From Patulibacter minatonensis DSM 18081 (GTDB lineage: Bacteria; Actinomycetota; Thermoleophilia; Solirubrobacterales; Solirubrobacteraceae), in the NCBI RefSeq assembly GCF_000519325.1, contig NZ_KI912613.1:3153432-3217431 (forward strand): DNA of 64,000 nucleotides, written 5' to 3'. Below the pieces are notes generated by a model, which had not been told where the DNA came from, searched no databases, and was given only the letters and a program-made list of their open reading frames with translations. Position numbers and translations under genes: made by a program. Every line of letters begins with the position of its first letter. The stretch's first letter is position 1. Positions 3,536 to 55,094 of this stretch are shown in pieces.

Positions 3536-4231
3536 TCAGCTCCGGCCGAGCCGCTTCAGGACGCCGCGGACCAGCTTCTCGCCGGTCTTCGCGGCCTCTC
3601 CGGCGAGCTCCACGCCCTGCTTCGTGGCGCCGCCGACGAGCCCGGCGACGCTGAGCCCGCCGCCGGTGCGGGCGTCGTCCGCGGACTCGGGCGTCGCCCA
3701 TCCCGAGCGCGGTGCGGGGGCGGTGGCGACGGGGGGCGTCGTCTCCTCGTCCGTCGCGGGCGTGCGGCGGGTCCCGCGGGCGGCCGACGTCCCGGACGAC
3801 GCGGTCGCGGGGACGCGCTTCGGCTTGGCGGCGGTGGCCTTGGGCTTGGCCGGGATGGTCTTCGCCGTGGTGGCCTTGGGCTTGGCCGGGGTGGTCTTCG
3901 CCGTGGTGGCCTTGGGCTTGGCCGGGGTGGTCTTCGCCGTGGTGGCCTTGGGCTTGGCCGGGGTGGTCTTCGCCGTGGTGGCCTTGGGCTTGGCCGGGGT
4001 GGTCTTCGCCGTGGTGGCCTTTGGCTTCGCCGTCGTGGTCTTCGCGGAAGCGGCCCGGGGCTTCGCCGGCGCCTTCGCCTTCGACGCGGCAGACCCGGTC
4101 CCGGCCGCACGGGTCTTCGCCGCCGCGGACCGCGGGCCGGCGGTGGCGCTCCCGCTCCCGGCGTCCTCCGCGTCCGCGGCGGTCCGCCGGGTGCTGCGCC
4201 GGCCCGGACGGGTGGAGGGCAGGTTGCCCAT
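3536..4231 (-). CDS. Lys/Ala/Pro-rich repeat protein (histone H1-like composition)
   Basis: A 231-residue very basic protein. Its centre is a run of about six 12-residue units of the type [12 protein letters not shown], flanked by further Ala/Lys/Pro-rich sequence, a composition like histone H1 tails and bacterial H1-like DNA-binding proteins. The last 40 residues are different: Gly/Ala/Val-rich then amphipathic and ending [13 protein letters not shown] choose the ATG at 4231 because GGAGAG lies 8 bases before it; an in-frame ATG at 4279 has no ribosome binding site. It is divergent from the primary sigma factor gene. Nucleoid or polymer (phasin-like) association is possible; function is not established. 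Confidence 0.65.
3832..4050. repeat. 36-bp tandem repeat inside the basic protein gene
   Basis: The unit is 36 bases (12 codons) and is repeated about six times; the central copies are identical or nearly so at DNA level, the outer ones diverge. Because the period is a multiple of three, copy-number change keeps the reading frame. Recent slippage or recombination is the simplest explanation for the identity. Confidence 0.9.
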
Positions 4232-5755: not shown

Positions 5756-5828
5756 CCCGGGGTCGGCGAAACGTCCACGACGTCCGTCCGGGCTGGCGGA
5801 CGCCGGCGGGCGCGCCGATCCGGACCCC

Positions 5829-7004
5829 ATGTCCCTCGATCTCCGTGCCTGCCTGACCGCCCTCGTCGCGGGCGGCGGATCCGACCTGCACCTGAAGGTC
5901 GGCCGGCCGCCCCTCGGACGCTTCGACGGGGTCCTGCGCCCGATCCTCCCCGGTCAGGAGCCGGCGACGGCGGAGGACACCGAGGAGGCGCTGCGGCACA
6001 TGCTCAAGGACGAGGAGAGCGCCCGCGTCTTCGCCGAGGAGCACGAGCTCGACCTCGCCCACCACGAGCAGGGCGTCGCCCGGCTCCGCGTCAACGCGTT
6101 CCGGCAGCGCGGCCTGGTCTCCATCGTCTGCCGCGTCGTCCCCGACGCCCCGTCGTCGCTGTCGGACCTCGGGCTCCCGCCCGCGATCGCGGAGCTCGCC
6201 GACGAGGAGCGCGGGCTCGTGCTCGTCACCGGCATCACCGGCTCCGGCAAGTCGACGACCCTCGCCGGGATGATCGATCGGATCAACCGGGCCAAGCCGT
6301 GTCACGTCGTCACGATCGAGGACCCGATCGAGATGCTGCACCAGGACCGCGTCGCGGTCATCAACCAGCGCGAGGTCGGCAGCGACACCGGGTCGTTCGG
6401 CCAGGCGCTGCGCCGCGTCCTGCGCCAGGACCCGGACGTCATCCTCATCGGCGAGCTCCGCGACGAGGAGACCGTCCGCGCCGCGCTGTCGGCCGCCGAA
6501 ACCGGCCACCTCGTCCTCTCGACCGTCCACACGATCGACGCCGCCGAGGCCGTCGGGCGCCTCGTCGGGTTCTTCCCGCCCCACCAGCACACCCAGATCC
6601 GCGAGATGCTCGCCACGACGCTGCAAGGCGTCGTCTCGCAGCGCCTCGTGCCGCTCGCCGAGGGCAAGGGGCGCATGGCGGTCTGCGAGATCCTCCGCGC
6701 CACCGGGCTCGTGAAGGACATCCTCCGCGACGCCGGCCGCACCGGCGAGCTCAACGCCGTGATCGCCGAGGGCGCGCACTACGGGATGCAGACCTTCGAC
6801 CAGGCGCTCTGCCGCTTCGTCCTCGACGGCGTCGTCGACCGGGCCGACGCGATGCGCGCCGCCGCCCGGCCGCACGACCTCGACCTGCTGCTGCGGGCCG
6901 ACGGACGGGCCGGCACCTCGATGGCGGACGTCGCCGACCAGGCCCGCCGCGGCGCCCGCGACACGGGCACCGATCCGCTCGTCCCCGCGCTGCCCGTCGT
7001 CTAG
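5829..7004 (+). CDS. pilT: PilT-type twitching/retraction ATPase
   Basis: A 391-residue secretion ATPase of the PilT/PilU group, which powers type IV pilus retraction at the cytoplasmic face. It begins with the PilT-type N-terminal domain (GGGSDLHLKVGRPP, residues 15-28). It then has Walker A GITGSGKST (135-143), the Asp box ILIGELRDEET, and the His box HLVLSTVHTIDAAEA with AEGKGRMAVCEIL downstream. The last 35 residues are not conserved in appearance. No other pilus genes lie in the window, so the substrate pilus is encoded elsewhere. The start ATG has no Shine-Dalgarno. Confidence 0.9.
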   Translation: MSLDLRACLTALVAGGGSDLHLKVGRPPLGRFDGVLRPILPGQEPATAEDTEEALRHMLKDEESARVFAEEHELDLAHHEQGVARLRVNAFRQRGLVSIVCRVVPDAPSSLSDLGLPPAIAELADEERGLVLVTGITGSGKSTTLAGMIDRINRAKPCHVVTIEDPIEMLHQDRVAVINQREVGSDTGSFGQALRRVLRQDPDVILIGELRDEETVRAALSAAETGHLVLSTVHTIDAAEAVGRLVGFFPPHQHTQIREMLATTLQGVVSQRLVPLAEGKGRMAVCEILRATGLVKDILRDAGRTGELNAVIAEGAHYGMQTFDQALCRFVLDGVVDRADAMRAAARPHDLDLLLRADGRAGTSMADVADQARRGARDTGTDPLVPALPVV

Positions 7005-16497: not shown

Positions 16498-16633
16498 CGG
16501 GGCAGGGGACCGGGCCCAGGCCCGGGCGTCGCGGGTCCGGGCCACGCCCGGGTCCCGGGTGCTCGGGCCACCCGGACGACATCCCCGGGCCGGGCGCGCG
16601 GAGCACCTGGCACGGCGCCCCTGAGCGGGCACC

Positions 16634-49684: not shown

Positions 49685-50737
49685 GTGATCGAGGCGCTGG
49701 TGGAACAGATCGAGGCCCGGTTCGCCGAGCTCGAGGCACAGATCGTCGATCCCGACGTCATCGGCGACCGCCGGCGCTACGCCGAGGTCGGACGCGAGTA
49801 CCGCCGCATGACGAACGCCAACGCGCTCGCCGGCCAGTGGCGTCACGCGGTCGACGACGCCGCCGGCGCCCGCGAGATGCTCGCCGACGACGAGGACCCC
49901 GAGATCCGCGAGATGCTCGACGCCGCGAAGCTGCGGATCACCGAGCTCGAGGAGGAGATCCGCGTCGCGATGGTCGACCCGGACCCCAACGACGACAAGG
50001 ACGTCATCGTCGAGATCCAGGGCGGCGCCGGCGGCGAGGAGGGCGGCCTGTTCGCGGGAGACGTCCACCGCATGCTCGTGAAGTACGCCGAGCGCCGCGG
50101 CTTCAAGACCGAGTCGCTGTCGGTCTCCGACGGCAAGTACACCTTCGCCGTCAAGGGCGAGGGCGCGTTCTCCGTCTTCAAGTGGGAGGCCGGGACCCAC
50201 CGCGTCCAGCGCGTGCCCGCCACCGAGACGCAGGGCCGCATCCACACCTCCACGTGCACCGTCGCCGTGCTCCCCGAGGCCGAGGACGTCGACATCCACA
50301 TCGAGCAGAGCGACCTCCAGATCGACGTCTACCGCTCGTCCGGCCCGGGCGGCCAGTCGGTGAACACCACGGACTCTGCCGTGCGGATCACGCACAAGCC
50401 CTCGGGCGTCGTCGTCTCGATGCAGGACGAGAAGTCGCAGCTCCAGAACCGCGAGAAGGCGCTCCGCGTTCTCCGCGCCCGCCTCTACGAGCACGCCGTC
50501 GCCGAGCAGCAGGCCGAGCAGTCCGCCGCCCGCTCCGCCCAGGTCGGCACCGGCGACCGCGCGGAGAAGATCCGCACGTACAACTTCGGCGAGGGTCGCG
50601 TCACCGACCACCGCATCAAGCTCACGAAGTACGCGCTCGAAGCGATCCTCGAGGGCGAGCTCGAGGAGTTCACCGGCGGTCTGCAGGCGGACGAGAAGCG
50701 CCGACTGCTCGAAGAGCTCGCCGCCTCCGGCGCGTGA
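49685..50737 (+). CDS. prfA: Peptide chain release factor 1
   Basis: A 350-residue class I release factor for UAA/UAG. The stop-recognition tripeptide is PAT in [18 protein letters not shown], the RF1 rather than RF2 (SPF) type. The peptidyl-tRNA hydrolysis motif is GGQ in [18 protein letters not shown], whose Gln is the target of PrmC methylation. The start at [13 protein letters not shown] is chosen from the -10 box and from family length; an in-frame start at 49646 adds 13 residues. Its stop overlaps the prmC GTG, so the modifying enzyme is translated with its substrate. Confidence 0.96.
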
Positions 50738-51582
50738 TCGACGGGACCGTCGGGGTCGCCGTCCGGCGCCTGACCGCCCGGTTCGCCGCGGTCGGCCTCG
50801 ACTCGCCGCGCCTGGACGCGGAGCTGCTGGTCGCGGACGCGATCGGCGCGGACCGCGCGCGGCTCTTCCTGTCGCCGGACCGGCCGCTCACCGCCGAGCA
50901 GGTGGCCGCGATCGCCGCGCACGAGGAGGGCCGGGCGGTCCGCCGCGCCTCGGTCGCGCACCTGCTGGGCGTGCGCGGGTTCCGGAACCTCGACCTGCGC
51001 GTCGACGGCCGTGTCCTGATCCCGCGGCCGGAGACCGAGCTGCTCGTCGAGCTCGGGCTGGAGCTGCCCGACGGCGCGACCGTCGTCGACGTCGGGACGG
51101 GCAGCGGCGCGATCGCCCTGGCCCTGGCCGACGAGCGCCCCGACCTCGTGGTCCATGCGACCGACGTCTCGGAGGACGCGCTCGTGGTCGCCCGCGAGAA
51201 CGCGCGGGTCCTCCGCTCCCCGGTCGTCTTCCACCACGGCGATCTCCTCGACGGCGTCCCCGCGCTGCCGGGCGACGTCGCCGTGCTCTCGAACCCGCCG
51301 TACGTCCCCGACGGGGACCTCGCGGGCCTCGCGCCGGAGGTCGCCGACCACGACCCGCACCTCGCGCTGTTCGGGGGCCCCGACGGGCTCGACGTCGTCC
51401 GCCGGCTGCTGCCCGCCGCCCGCGCGTTCGGCGCCACGCTCGTCGGGGTGGAGATCGGGATCGGCCAGGCCGACGCCACCGCGGCGCTCGCCCGGGCGGC
51501 CGGATTCCCGGACACGGAGGTCCGGGACGACCTCGCCGGCATCGGCCGGATCGTGGTCGGGCGCGCGCCGGACCGCTGCTAG
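50734..51582 (+). CDS. prmC: Release factor glutamine methyltransferase PrmC
   Basis: A 282-residue SAM-dependent N5-glutamine methyltransferase acting on the GGQ motif of release factors. The N-terminal helical domain is followed by [12 protein letters not shown], motif [33 protein letters not shown], and the catalytic/binding motif SNPPYVP. The GTG start overlaps the prfA stop by four bases. The stop TAG overlaps the -10 box of the next gene. Confidence 0.94.
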
Positions 51583-52298: not shown

Positions 52299-52934
52299 GT
52301 GAGCACTGAGCAGCTGCCGCTGGACCCCGCGGCGATCACGGCGCTCACCGCCGAGACGACCCGCGGGGGCGTGGTCCTGTTCCCCGCCGAGGGGGTCTAC
52401 GGCCTCGCGGCCGACCCGAACGACCCCGACGCCGTGCGCGCGCTCGCGACGCTGAAGGGCCGCGACCCCCGCAAGCCGTCCGCGGTGCTGCACTGGACCC
52501 TCGACGCCGCGCTGGCGGCCGTCGACGGCGCGGGGGAGGACGTCCTCCACGCGATGCGGTGCCTGCTGCCCGGCCCCGTCGGCGTGCTCGTCCCCAACCC
52601 CGCACGCCGCTACGCGCTCGCGCTGGGCGACGACCCGACGACGCTCGGGCTCCGCGTCCCCCTGCTGGCCGCGGCCGTCGACGCGCCCGCGGTCGTGCAG
52701 ACGAGCGCCAACCGCGCGGGCGGCCCGGATCCCGCGCAGATCGAGGACGTCCCGGACGACATCCGCGACGCCTGCGCGCTCGTCCTGGACCGCGGGCGAC
52801 GCTCGGGGCGTCCGTCGACGATCGTCGACCTGCGCGGGCTCGCGACGGGCGACGGCTGGAGCGTCGTCCGCGAGGGTGCGGTGCCCCGGGCGGAGATCGG
52901 GCGCCTGCTCGACGGGACCGGCGCACCCCGCTGA
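52299..52934 (+). CDS. L-threonylcarbamoyladenylate synthase (Sua5/YrdC)
   Basis: A 211-residue YrdC-domain protein, which makes the threonylcarbamoyl-AMP used for t6A37 in tRNA. Features: GGVVLFPAEGVYGLAADPND, LKGRDPRKPSAVLHW (the KxR..KP substrate motif), LLPGPVGVLVPNP, LGLRVPLLA, QTSANRAGG and RPSTIVDL. Length matches YrdC-only enzymes without the Sua5 C-terminal domain. The start is GTG. The gene is in its usual place after prmC and before rpiB. Confidence 0.93.
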   Translation: MSTEQLPLDPAAITALTAETTRGGVVLFPAEGVYGLAADPNDPDAVRALATLKGRDPRKPSAVLHWTLDAALAAVDGAGEDVLHAMRCLLPGPVGVLVPNPARRYALALGDDPTTLGLRVPLLAAAVDAPAVVQTSANRAGGPDPAQIEDVPDDIRDACALVLDRGRRSGRPSTIVDLRGLATGDGWSVVREGAVPRAEIGRLLDGTGAPR

Positions 52935-52960
52935 GACGACGGGCCCGGGCGAGCGCCCTC

Positions 52961-52966
52961 TACGAT
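52961..52966 (+). promoter_or_regulatory. -10 box TACGAT of rpiB
   Basis: TACGAT ends six bases before the ATG at 52973; the rpiB mRNA is probably leaderless. Confidence 0.45.
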
Positions 52967-52972
52967 CCGCCC

Positions 52973-53467
52973 ATGCGGATCGCCGTCGCCTCCGACCACG
53001 CCGGGTTCACCCTCAAGGAGCACGTCAAGGCCGCGCTGTCCGCGCAGGGCCACGACGTCCTCGACGCCGGCACCACGTCCGACGCGTCGACCGACTACCC
53101 CGAGTACGCCGCCAAGGCCGCCCGTCAGGTCGCGGCCGGGGACGCGGACCGCGGCGTCGTCGTCTGCGGCTCCGGCAACGGCGTCACGATCACCGCGAAC
53201 AAGATCGCCGGGATCCGGGCCGTCAACGCCCACGACGCCGCCGAGGCGACGATGGCCCGGCAGCACAACGGCATCAACGTCCTCGGGCTGTCGCAGGCCC
53301 GCCTCGACGGCGCCGCCGCCGAGGAGATCGTCGCCGCCTTCCTGAGCACCGAGTTCGAGGGCGGCCGCCACGAGCGCCGCATCGGCGAGATCGCGGACGT
53401 CGAGGGCGGGGGCGACGGCACGGCCCCCGCCTCGACGGAGATCCCGCCGGTCGCACCGACCCACTGA
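52973..53467 (+). CDS. rpiB: Ribose-5-phosphate isomerase B
   Basis: A 164-residue RpiB that interconverts ribose 5-phosphate and ribulose 5-phosphate. Seen: [56 protein letters not shown] (active-site Cys), and [23 protein letters not shown]. The catalytic core ends near residue 142; the last about 20 residues ([18 protein letters not shown]) are a tail of unusual composition. The tail's DNA, together with the stop codon and 42 bases of spacer, is repeated downstream with a 99-base period. Confidence 0.95.
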
Positions 53468-53664
53468 TCGAAGGGTCCTCGACGTCGGACGCCGCGCCAC
53501 CCACCCGGGGGCGACGGCACGGCCCCGGTGGAGACGGACGTCCCGCCGATCGCACCGACGCACTGATCGAAGGGTCCTCGACGTCGGACGCCGCGCCACC
53601 CACCCGGGGGCGACGGCACGGCCCCCGCCTCGACGGAGATCCCGCCGATCGCACCGACCCACTG
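53411..53664. repeat. 99-bp tandem repeat duplicating the rpiB 3' end
   Basis: Copies begin at 53411, 53510 and 53609 (each at GGCGACGGCA); the third is partial and ends with the CCACTG of the tail. Each copy carries the rpiB C-terminal codons, the stop and a spacer. In-frame stops recur at 53465, 53564 and 53663. The copies are nearly identical; the middle one differs in a short block (GTGGAGACGGACGTC for GCCTCGACGGAGATC). The period is 33 codons, so the frame is kept. This fills the first half of the 343-base gap before glyA. Confidence 0.95.
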
Positions 53665-53694
53665 ACGCGCACAGAGGTCCACCGGCGGGACCGG

Positions 53695-53700
53695 TAGCCT
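53695..53700 (+). promoter_or_regulatory. Putative -10 box upstream of the ZTP riboswitch
   Basis: TAGCCT, TANNNT-type, ending a few bases before the first riboswitch helix. It lies 30 bases after the last 99-bp repeat copy. Confidence 0.4.
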
Positions 53701-53702
53701 CC

Positions 53703-53783
53703 CTCTTCGTCGCGACTGGCGCCACGGGTGGAACCGACCACCGGGGAGCGACGAGGCAGCACCGCCGCGCGCCTGGGCACCCG
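53703..53783 (+). promoter_or_regulatory. ZTP (pfl) riboswitch
   Basis: In order: CTTCGTCGCGACTGGCG, CGGGTGG, CCACCGGGGAGCGACGAGG and CCGCGCGCCTGGGCAC. These are the highly conserved blocks of the pfl RNA: CGACUGGCG, CCACCGGGGAGC and CGCCUGGGC. The flanks TTCGTCG and CGACGAG can pair as the closing stem. The class binds ZTP/ZMP, which accumulate when 10-formyl-tetrahydrofolate runs short, and turns expression on. Location before glyA is a known arrangement. Confidence 0.95.
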
Positions 53784-53810
53784 AACCGCACGTTCCCGAA
53801 GGAGACGCCC

Positions 53811-55094
53811 GTGTCCGAACTGCCCAACGACTACTTCAACGCCTCGCTGGCGGAGGTCGATCCGGAGGTCGCGGCCTCGGTCGCCGACGAGCTCCGGCGC
53901 CAGCAGGACACGCTGGAGATGATCGCGTCGGAGAACTTCGTCCCCCAGTCGGTGCTGGAGGCCCAGGGCTCGGTCCTCACGAACAAGTACGCGGAGGGCT
54001 ACCCCGGCCGCCGGTACTACGGCGGCTGCGAGCACGTCGACGTGATCGAGCAGCTCGCGATCGACCGGGCGAAGGAGCTGTTCGGGGCCGAGCACGCCAA
54101 CGTGCAGCCCCACGCAGGCGCGCAGGCCAACAACGCCGTCTACCACGCGCTGCTGCAGCCGGGCGACCGCGTGATGGGCCTGTCGCTCTCCCACGGCGGG
54201 CACCTGAGCCACGGCATGAAGCTCAACGTGTCCGGGAGGCTCTACGACATCGTCGCGTACGAGGTCGACAAGGACACCTCGCTCGTCGACATGGACGAGG
54301 TCGCCCGGATCGCCCGCGAGACGAAGCCGAAGATGATCATCGCCGGCTGGTCGGCGTACCCGCGGCACCTCGACTTCGCGCGCTTCCGGGAGATCGCCGA
54401 CGAGGTCGGCGCGTACCTCTGGGTCGACATGGCGCACTTCGCCGGGCTCGTCGCCGCCGGCCTGCACCCCAGCCCCGTCCCGCACGCCCACGTCGTGACC
54501 ACCACGGTCCACAAGACCCTCGGCGGCCCCCGCTCGGGGATCATCCTCTGCAAGCAGGAGTTCCAGAAGAAGATCGACCAGGCGATCTTCCCCGGCCAGC
54601 AGGGCGGCCCGCTGGAGCACGTGATCGCCGCCAAGGCCGTCGCGCTGAAGATCGCCGCGTCGGACGCCTTCAAGGAGCGCCAGCAGCGCACCATCGACGG
54701 CGCACGCGTCGTCGCCGAGGAGCTGCTCGCCGCCGGTGGCGGCCTGAACGTCCTGACCGGCGGCACCGACGTGCACCTGACCCTCGTCGACCTGCGCGAG
54801 ACCGAGCTGGACGGTCAGCAGGCCGAGGACCGCCTGCACGAGGTCGGCATCACGGTCAACCGCAACGCGGTGCCCTTCGACCCGCGCCCGCCGATGGTCA
54901 CGAGCGGCCTGCGCGTCGGCACCTCCGCCCTCGCCACGCGCGGTCTCGACGTCGACGCGTTCCGGGAGGTCGGCAAGGTCATCGGCCAGGCGCTGCAGGG
55001 CGACGACGCCGCGTTCGCCGCCGCGAAGGACGACCTCGCCGCCCGCATCACCGCCGTCGCCGCGGCGTACCCGCTGTACACGCACCTCGGCTGA
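53811..55094 (+). CDS. glyA: Serine hydroxymethyltransferase
   Basis: A 427-residue PLP enzyme converting serine and tetrahydrofolate to glycine and 5,10-methylene-THF, the main entry of one-carbon units. It has [43 protein letters not shown], and the PLP-lysine motif [16 protein letters not shown] (K235). The GTG start is preceded by GAAGGAG. Control by the ZTP riboswitch in its leader is strongly indicated. A hairpin follows. Confidence 0.97.

What the first reader, a model, noticed from the sequence alone, without database searches (positions are those of the whole stretch)
53411..53664. In-frame 99-bp tandem duplication of the rpiB 3' end, with its stop codon
Three copies (two full, one partial) at exact 99-base spacing each carry the rpiB C-terminal tail codons, a TGA and about 42 bases of spacer. 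The 33-codon period keeps the frame, so each copy restores the same tail and stop. The copies are nearly identical apart from one block, pointing to recent amplification or repeated gene conversion. It sits directly before the ZTP-riboswitch promoter of glyA. It could act as a safety stop, a regulated readthrough module or a transcription buffer between rpiB and glyA.
Basis: seen in the sequence. Interest (0 to 1): 0.6.

Follow-up and report, generated by a model that had tools for sequence, protein, structure and literature searches.

The report
Tandemly repeated tail of rpiB gene
The last codons of a sugar-phosphate isomerase gene (rpiB) and its stop codon have been copied head to tail two extra times in the gap before the next gene; sister species carry two copies or one, in a different reading frame, so this looks like an ordinary intergenic tandem repeat kept similar by exchange between copies and not a readthrough device.

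Summary
Positions 53407-53665 hold 2.6 copies of a 99-nt unit (two full, one tail-only), each carrying the rpiB tail and a TGA, directly before a ZTP riboswitch and glyA in a Patulibacter genome. Seven genus relatives were searched. Two sister species (G007, G002) have two copies starting 98 nt apart, so the second copy is out of frame; in G007 the rpiB stop is TAG and in G002 the second copy is broken by an insertion. Two more distant species have the tail once, two lack the tail, and in one draft rpiB was not found. The first duplication is therefore older than the three species; only the third copy is particular to this genome. The copies exchange sequence: copies 1 and 3 differ at 1 of 60 sites, copy 2 at 8-9. 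The 33-codon period is a coincidence of this genome, so the readthrough and safety-stop readings lose their basis. No terminator was found and no RNA element was shown. Tandem arrays of 55-110 nt periods are common in this genome; one that includes a gene's tail and stop is rare. Verdict: real, largely ordinary, a locally arisen minisatellite under concerted evolution.

The parts
52973..53467 (+). rpiB, ribose-5-phosphate isomerase B, 164 aa, stop TGA
   Evidence: reading frame; NCBIfam PRK05571 1.2e-50 and TIGR01120 above cut-off
53407..53505 (+). repeat copy 1: last 19 codons of rpiB, stop 53465-53467, spacer
53506..53604 (+). repeat copy 2: full unit, stop 53564-53566; keeps ancestral-like states at several tail sites
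53605..53665 (+). repeat copy 3: tail and stop only; 1/60 difference from copy 1
53398..53437 (+). near-perfect 15-bp inverted repeat inside the rpiB 3' coding end; weaker in relatives; copies 2 and 3 lack its left arm
   Evidence: dG -33.4, z -4.8 for the 45-nt segment; z -2.0 and -2.5 in relatives
53695..53700 (+). putative -10 (TAGCCT) of the glyA promoter; TANNNT at this place in most relatives (inferred)
   Evidence: sequences and alignment
53702..53785 (+). ZTP riboswitch (RF01750)
53811..55094 (+). glyA, serine hydroxymethyltransferase

Best explanation
A local tandem duplication of the rpiB 3' end with downstream DNA arose in the common ancestor of three Patulibacter species. Copies then exchanged sequence by gene conversion or unequal exchange, and a third copy was added in this genome's lineage. 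Only the first tail is translated; the extra ones are untranslated DNA between the rpiB stop and the glyA promoter, with no function of their own shown. Shown: the array, its copy number and spacing in relatives, substitutions shared within genomes. Inferred: the mechanism (replication slippage or unequal crossing-over), the direction of conversion, absence of translation of the extra tails, and near-neutrality.
For: Copy number follows relatedness: 3 here, 2 in G007, 2 in G002, 1 in G001 and G004, no tail in G003 and G005. Tail and spacer are homologous across the three array-bearing species. Terminal copies of all three share C at tail alignment column 66 where first copies of the relatives, window copy 2 and single-copy outgroups have G, so duplication predates the split; columns 23, 24, 45 (window copies 1 and 3), 55 (window copies 2 and 3) and 56 (both G002 copies) are shared within a genome, so copies exchanged. 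Parsimony over 945 trees groups window copies 1 and 3, next to the terminal copy of G007, at 29 steps; grouping first copies together needs 34. Spacing of 98 in both relatives breaks the frame. Tandem arrays are frequent in the genome: 23 of period 55-150 and at least 85% matches in 1.26 Mb.
Against: A 29-nt core of the spacer differs at only 1-3 sites between species (counted on the alignment), fewer than third codon positions of rpiB (about 20%; binomial P 0.013-0.14), while DNA past the last copy hardly aligns; this hints at constraint. Parsimony margins are small (60 sites, 8 sequences). G002 and G007 are draft metagenome-derived assemblies. No reads were available to confirm three copies.
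Confidence: 0.83

Rival explanations
1. The array is a functional RNA or DNA element (mRNA 3'-end structure, insulator or upstream element of the glyA promoter), and exchange keeps it intact.
For: Spacer core unusually conserved in three species; strong inverted repeat at the rpiB 3' end, z -4.8; position directly before the glyA promoter and riboswitch. A variable repeat upstream of M. tuberculosis fpg1 correlates with its expression (PMC2734929).
Against: Four genus relatives have the same rpiB-glyA order and riboswitch without any array. Fold energies of whole copies are within the shuffle range. No terminator. The strong hairpin is in translated sequence and cannot form in copies 2 and 3. 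One relative's second copy is disrupted.
Confidence: 0.1
2. In-frame safety stop or regulated readthrough module, as proposed by the first reader.
For: In this genome the period is 99 and the frame is kept.
Against: 98-nt spacing in both relatives puts the second stop out of frame; G007 uses TAG; single-copy relatives have no second stop of this kind; arrays in this genome show no bias to multiples of three.
Confidence: 0.02
3. Assembly artefact in copy number.
For: Short tandem repeats can be misassembled; no reads were seen here.
Against: Copy 2 differs from 1 and 3 at 8-9 tail sites, so copies are distinguishable; the tail and spacer duplication recurs in two independent assemblies.
Confidence: 0.05

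Closest known systems
Bacterial intergenic minisatellites / VNTR loci (for example ETR-F/VNTR3239 between rnc and fpg1 of M. tuberculosis, PMC2734929)
   Same: Short head-to-tail units of tens of nt between two genes, starting close to a stop codon, copy number differing between lineages, absent in relatives
   Different: Here the unit includes the coding tail and stop of the upstream gene; variation was seen between species only, no strain data
MIRU (mycobacterial interspersed repetitive units)
   Same: Intergenic units of 40-100 bp, in tandem, in actinobacteria
   Different: MIRUs are one dispersed family at 41 loci (as cited in PMC2734929); the rpiB unit occurs at one locus only
REP/BIME-type palindromic repeats
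   Same: GC-rich inverted repeat within a repeated unit between genes
   Different: REP families are dispersed and extragenic (general knowledge); this unit is single-locus and partly coding. No Y1_Tnp (PF01797) gene was found in this genome

Membership tests
Intergenic minisatellite / VNTR-like tandem repeat | head-to-tail near-identical units of about 10-100 bp | tested here: met
   99 nt, 2.6 copies, 89% matches
Intergenic minisatellite / VNTR-like tandem repeat | copy number differs between related lineages | tested here: met
   3, 2, 2, 1, 1 tail copies in the species that have the tail, none in two; between species only
Intergenic minisatellite / VNTR-like tandem repeat | copy number differs between strains of one species | not testable with these tools
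   one genome per species is held
MIRU / dispersed repeat family | same unit at many loci | tested here: not met
   only matches of about 27 nt elsewhere in the genome
Readthrough / double-stop module | frame between stops conserved in relatives | tested here: not met
   98-nt spacing in G007 and G002
Intrinsic terminator | GC hairpin followed by a T run | tested here: not met
   0 sites in 52900-54000; terminators without a T run are not covered by that scan

The most novel reading that the evidence does not exclude
The spacer core and the downstream rpiB-tail copy form a small conserved cis element of the rpiB-glyA junction in one Patulibacter clade, maintained by gene conversion with the live gene end, and the copy number tunes rpiB mRNA 3'-end stability or glyA promoter activity.
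Probability: 0.06. Interest if true: 0.4.

Novelty: new member of a known kind. Interest (0 to 1): 0.15.

Why it matters
Mostly as a clean small example: a gene's own end duplicated into the intergenic region, dated by relatives, with mosaic exchange between the live end and its copies. It also cautions against reading function into a repeat whose period is divisible by three. If the spacer core is truly constrained, it would mark a clade-specific cis element between rpiB and a glyA preceded by a ZTP riboswitch.

Tried and rejected
Spacer as a decayed copy of the DNA downstream of the last copy, including the glyA promoter: no similarity beyond shuffles (lowest p 0.18). Spacer as a direct or inverted piece of rpiB: not significant except one of six comparisons (G002 inverted, p 0.004), so not claimed. 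Terminator: none. Repeat as member of a dispersed family: single locus. Quasipalindrome correction as source of the TG to CC change in copy 1 (it perfects the 15-bp inverted repeat): possible, known as a mutation type (PMC7202029, abstract only), but two substitutions do not prove it. Plasmid and viral searches gave only distant rpiB relatives. Literature searches found no description of this locus.

Full report
Observation. The array is real and as described: a 99-nt unit, two full copies and a third that ends at its stop codon, at 53407-53665. The unit holds the last 19 codons of rpiB with the stop, plus 39 nt of spacer. Copies 1 and 2 have identical spacers; copy 3 is followed by unrelated sequence. 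The array lies between rpiB (52973-53467) and a ZTP riboswitch (53702-53785) that precedes glyA (53811-55094).

Relatives. In the genus (eight genomes with this one) rpiB was found next to the ZTP riboswitch in six others (the riboswitch was recognised by its conserved motifs, not by a covariance search there). G007 has two copies and rpiB ends in TAG; G002 has two copies, the second with a 12-nt net insertion and neighbouring substitutions; G004 and G001 have a single tail; G003 and G005 end nine residues earlier and have no tail. In G006 (82% complete) no close rpiB was found. In both two-copy species the copies start 98 nt apart, so the second tail is not in the rpiB frame. The 33-codon period is a feature of this genome alone. 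Among 23 tandem arrays of period 55-150 and at least 85% matches in 1.26 Mb of this genome (this one included), 6 have a period divisible by three, as chance would give; that count includes some arrays in coding sequence.

History of the copies. Rows of tail sequence were aligned and compared. Column 66 separates terminal copies (C in all three species) from first copies of the relatives, window copy 2 and the single-copy outgroups (G): the duplication is older than the three species. The spacer is also homologous in all three. Other columns are shared within a genome: 23, 24 and 45 by window copies 1 and 3, 55 by window copies 2 and 3, 56 by both G002 copies. Exhaustive parsimony (945 trees; the broken G002 copy 2 was left out) puts window copies 1 and 3 together, beside the terminal copy of G007, with window copy 2 nearer the first copy of G002 (29 steps; 34 if first copies are forced together). 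The live rpiB end is thus a partner in the exchange; the direction cannot be fixed. The margins are small and this is a reconstruction, not a measurement.

Structure. The rpiB 3' end forms a near-perfect 15-bp inverted repeat (53398-53437; -33.4 kcal/mol, z -4.8 for the 45-nt segment), weaker in G007 and G002 (z -2.0, -2.5). That segment was chosen after seeing the fold, so its z is flattering. Copies 2 and 3 lack the left arm. Whole copies and the whole array fold within the range of shuffles (z -0.95 to -1.75). No terminator-like or promoter-like consensus site was found; that scan covers T-run terminators and sigma-70 consensus only. A TANNNT hexamer stands just before the riboswitch in this genome and most relatives, the likely glyA -10; the array lies upstream of it.

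Possible constraint. A 29-nt spacer core differs at 1 to 3 sites between species, against about 20% at third positions of rpiB (binomial P 0.013, 0.052 and 0.14; the core's bounds were chosen by eye). This is the one observation that plain neutrality does not readily explain, and it carries the novel case.

Base rate. In 60 stretches of 20 kb plus the window, tandem arrays of 55-150 nt period and high identity number 23. Many belong to dispersed palindromic families with periods of 61-74 nt, some starting right after a stop codon. The rpiB unit is not one of them: it matches only its own locus. Of 75 arrays tested, three had a likely coding stop within the first unit: the rpiB array clearly, and two weak, lower-scoring ones. 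A crude gene caller was used, and in its first form it missed rpiB itself, so this is a rough count.

Conclusion. Real, ordinary in kind, uncommon in detail.

Noticed in passing
L211:19771-19990; L174:4635-4857; window 16506-16576: A 74-nt GC-rich hairpin unit (around GACCCGAGCTTCTCGGGT) recurs at many places in this genome and in five of seven genus relatives, often head to tail; at L211 it begins directly after a stop codon. No Rfam match for the L211 array. A diverged copy lies in the window just after a TAG that ends a plus-strand reading frame.
   Followed up: partly
L166:4499-4731, 5806-6103; L162:16189-16359; L185:5186-5307; L201:16163-16294: 61-nt palindromic tandem family (CTGCGGATTCCTGCCG...CGGCAGCGATCCGCAGC), 30 matches in the genome.
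   Followed up: partly
L178:692-891; L158:17191-17379; L190:10861-11045; L159:9027-9400: 70-nt palindromic tandem family (CGTGTCGG.TTCGGTACC...GATCCGACACG), 32 matches here and almost none in seven genus relatives, so apparently expanded in this species; no Y1_Tnp gene in the genome.
   Followed up: partly
L180:6636-6884; L183:2808-2976; L185:15521-15762: Another dispersed tandem family around GGTCGGATACCGACC, periods 61-72.
   Followed up: no
window 50722-50799: Weak 36-nt period repeat (2.2 copies, 75% matches) that includes the stop TGA of a plus-strand reading frame at about 50735.
   Followed up: no
window 3833-4069: Tandem repeat in a predicted coding region, 36 nt x 5.9 copies, 97% matches.
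   Followed up: no
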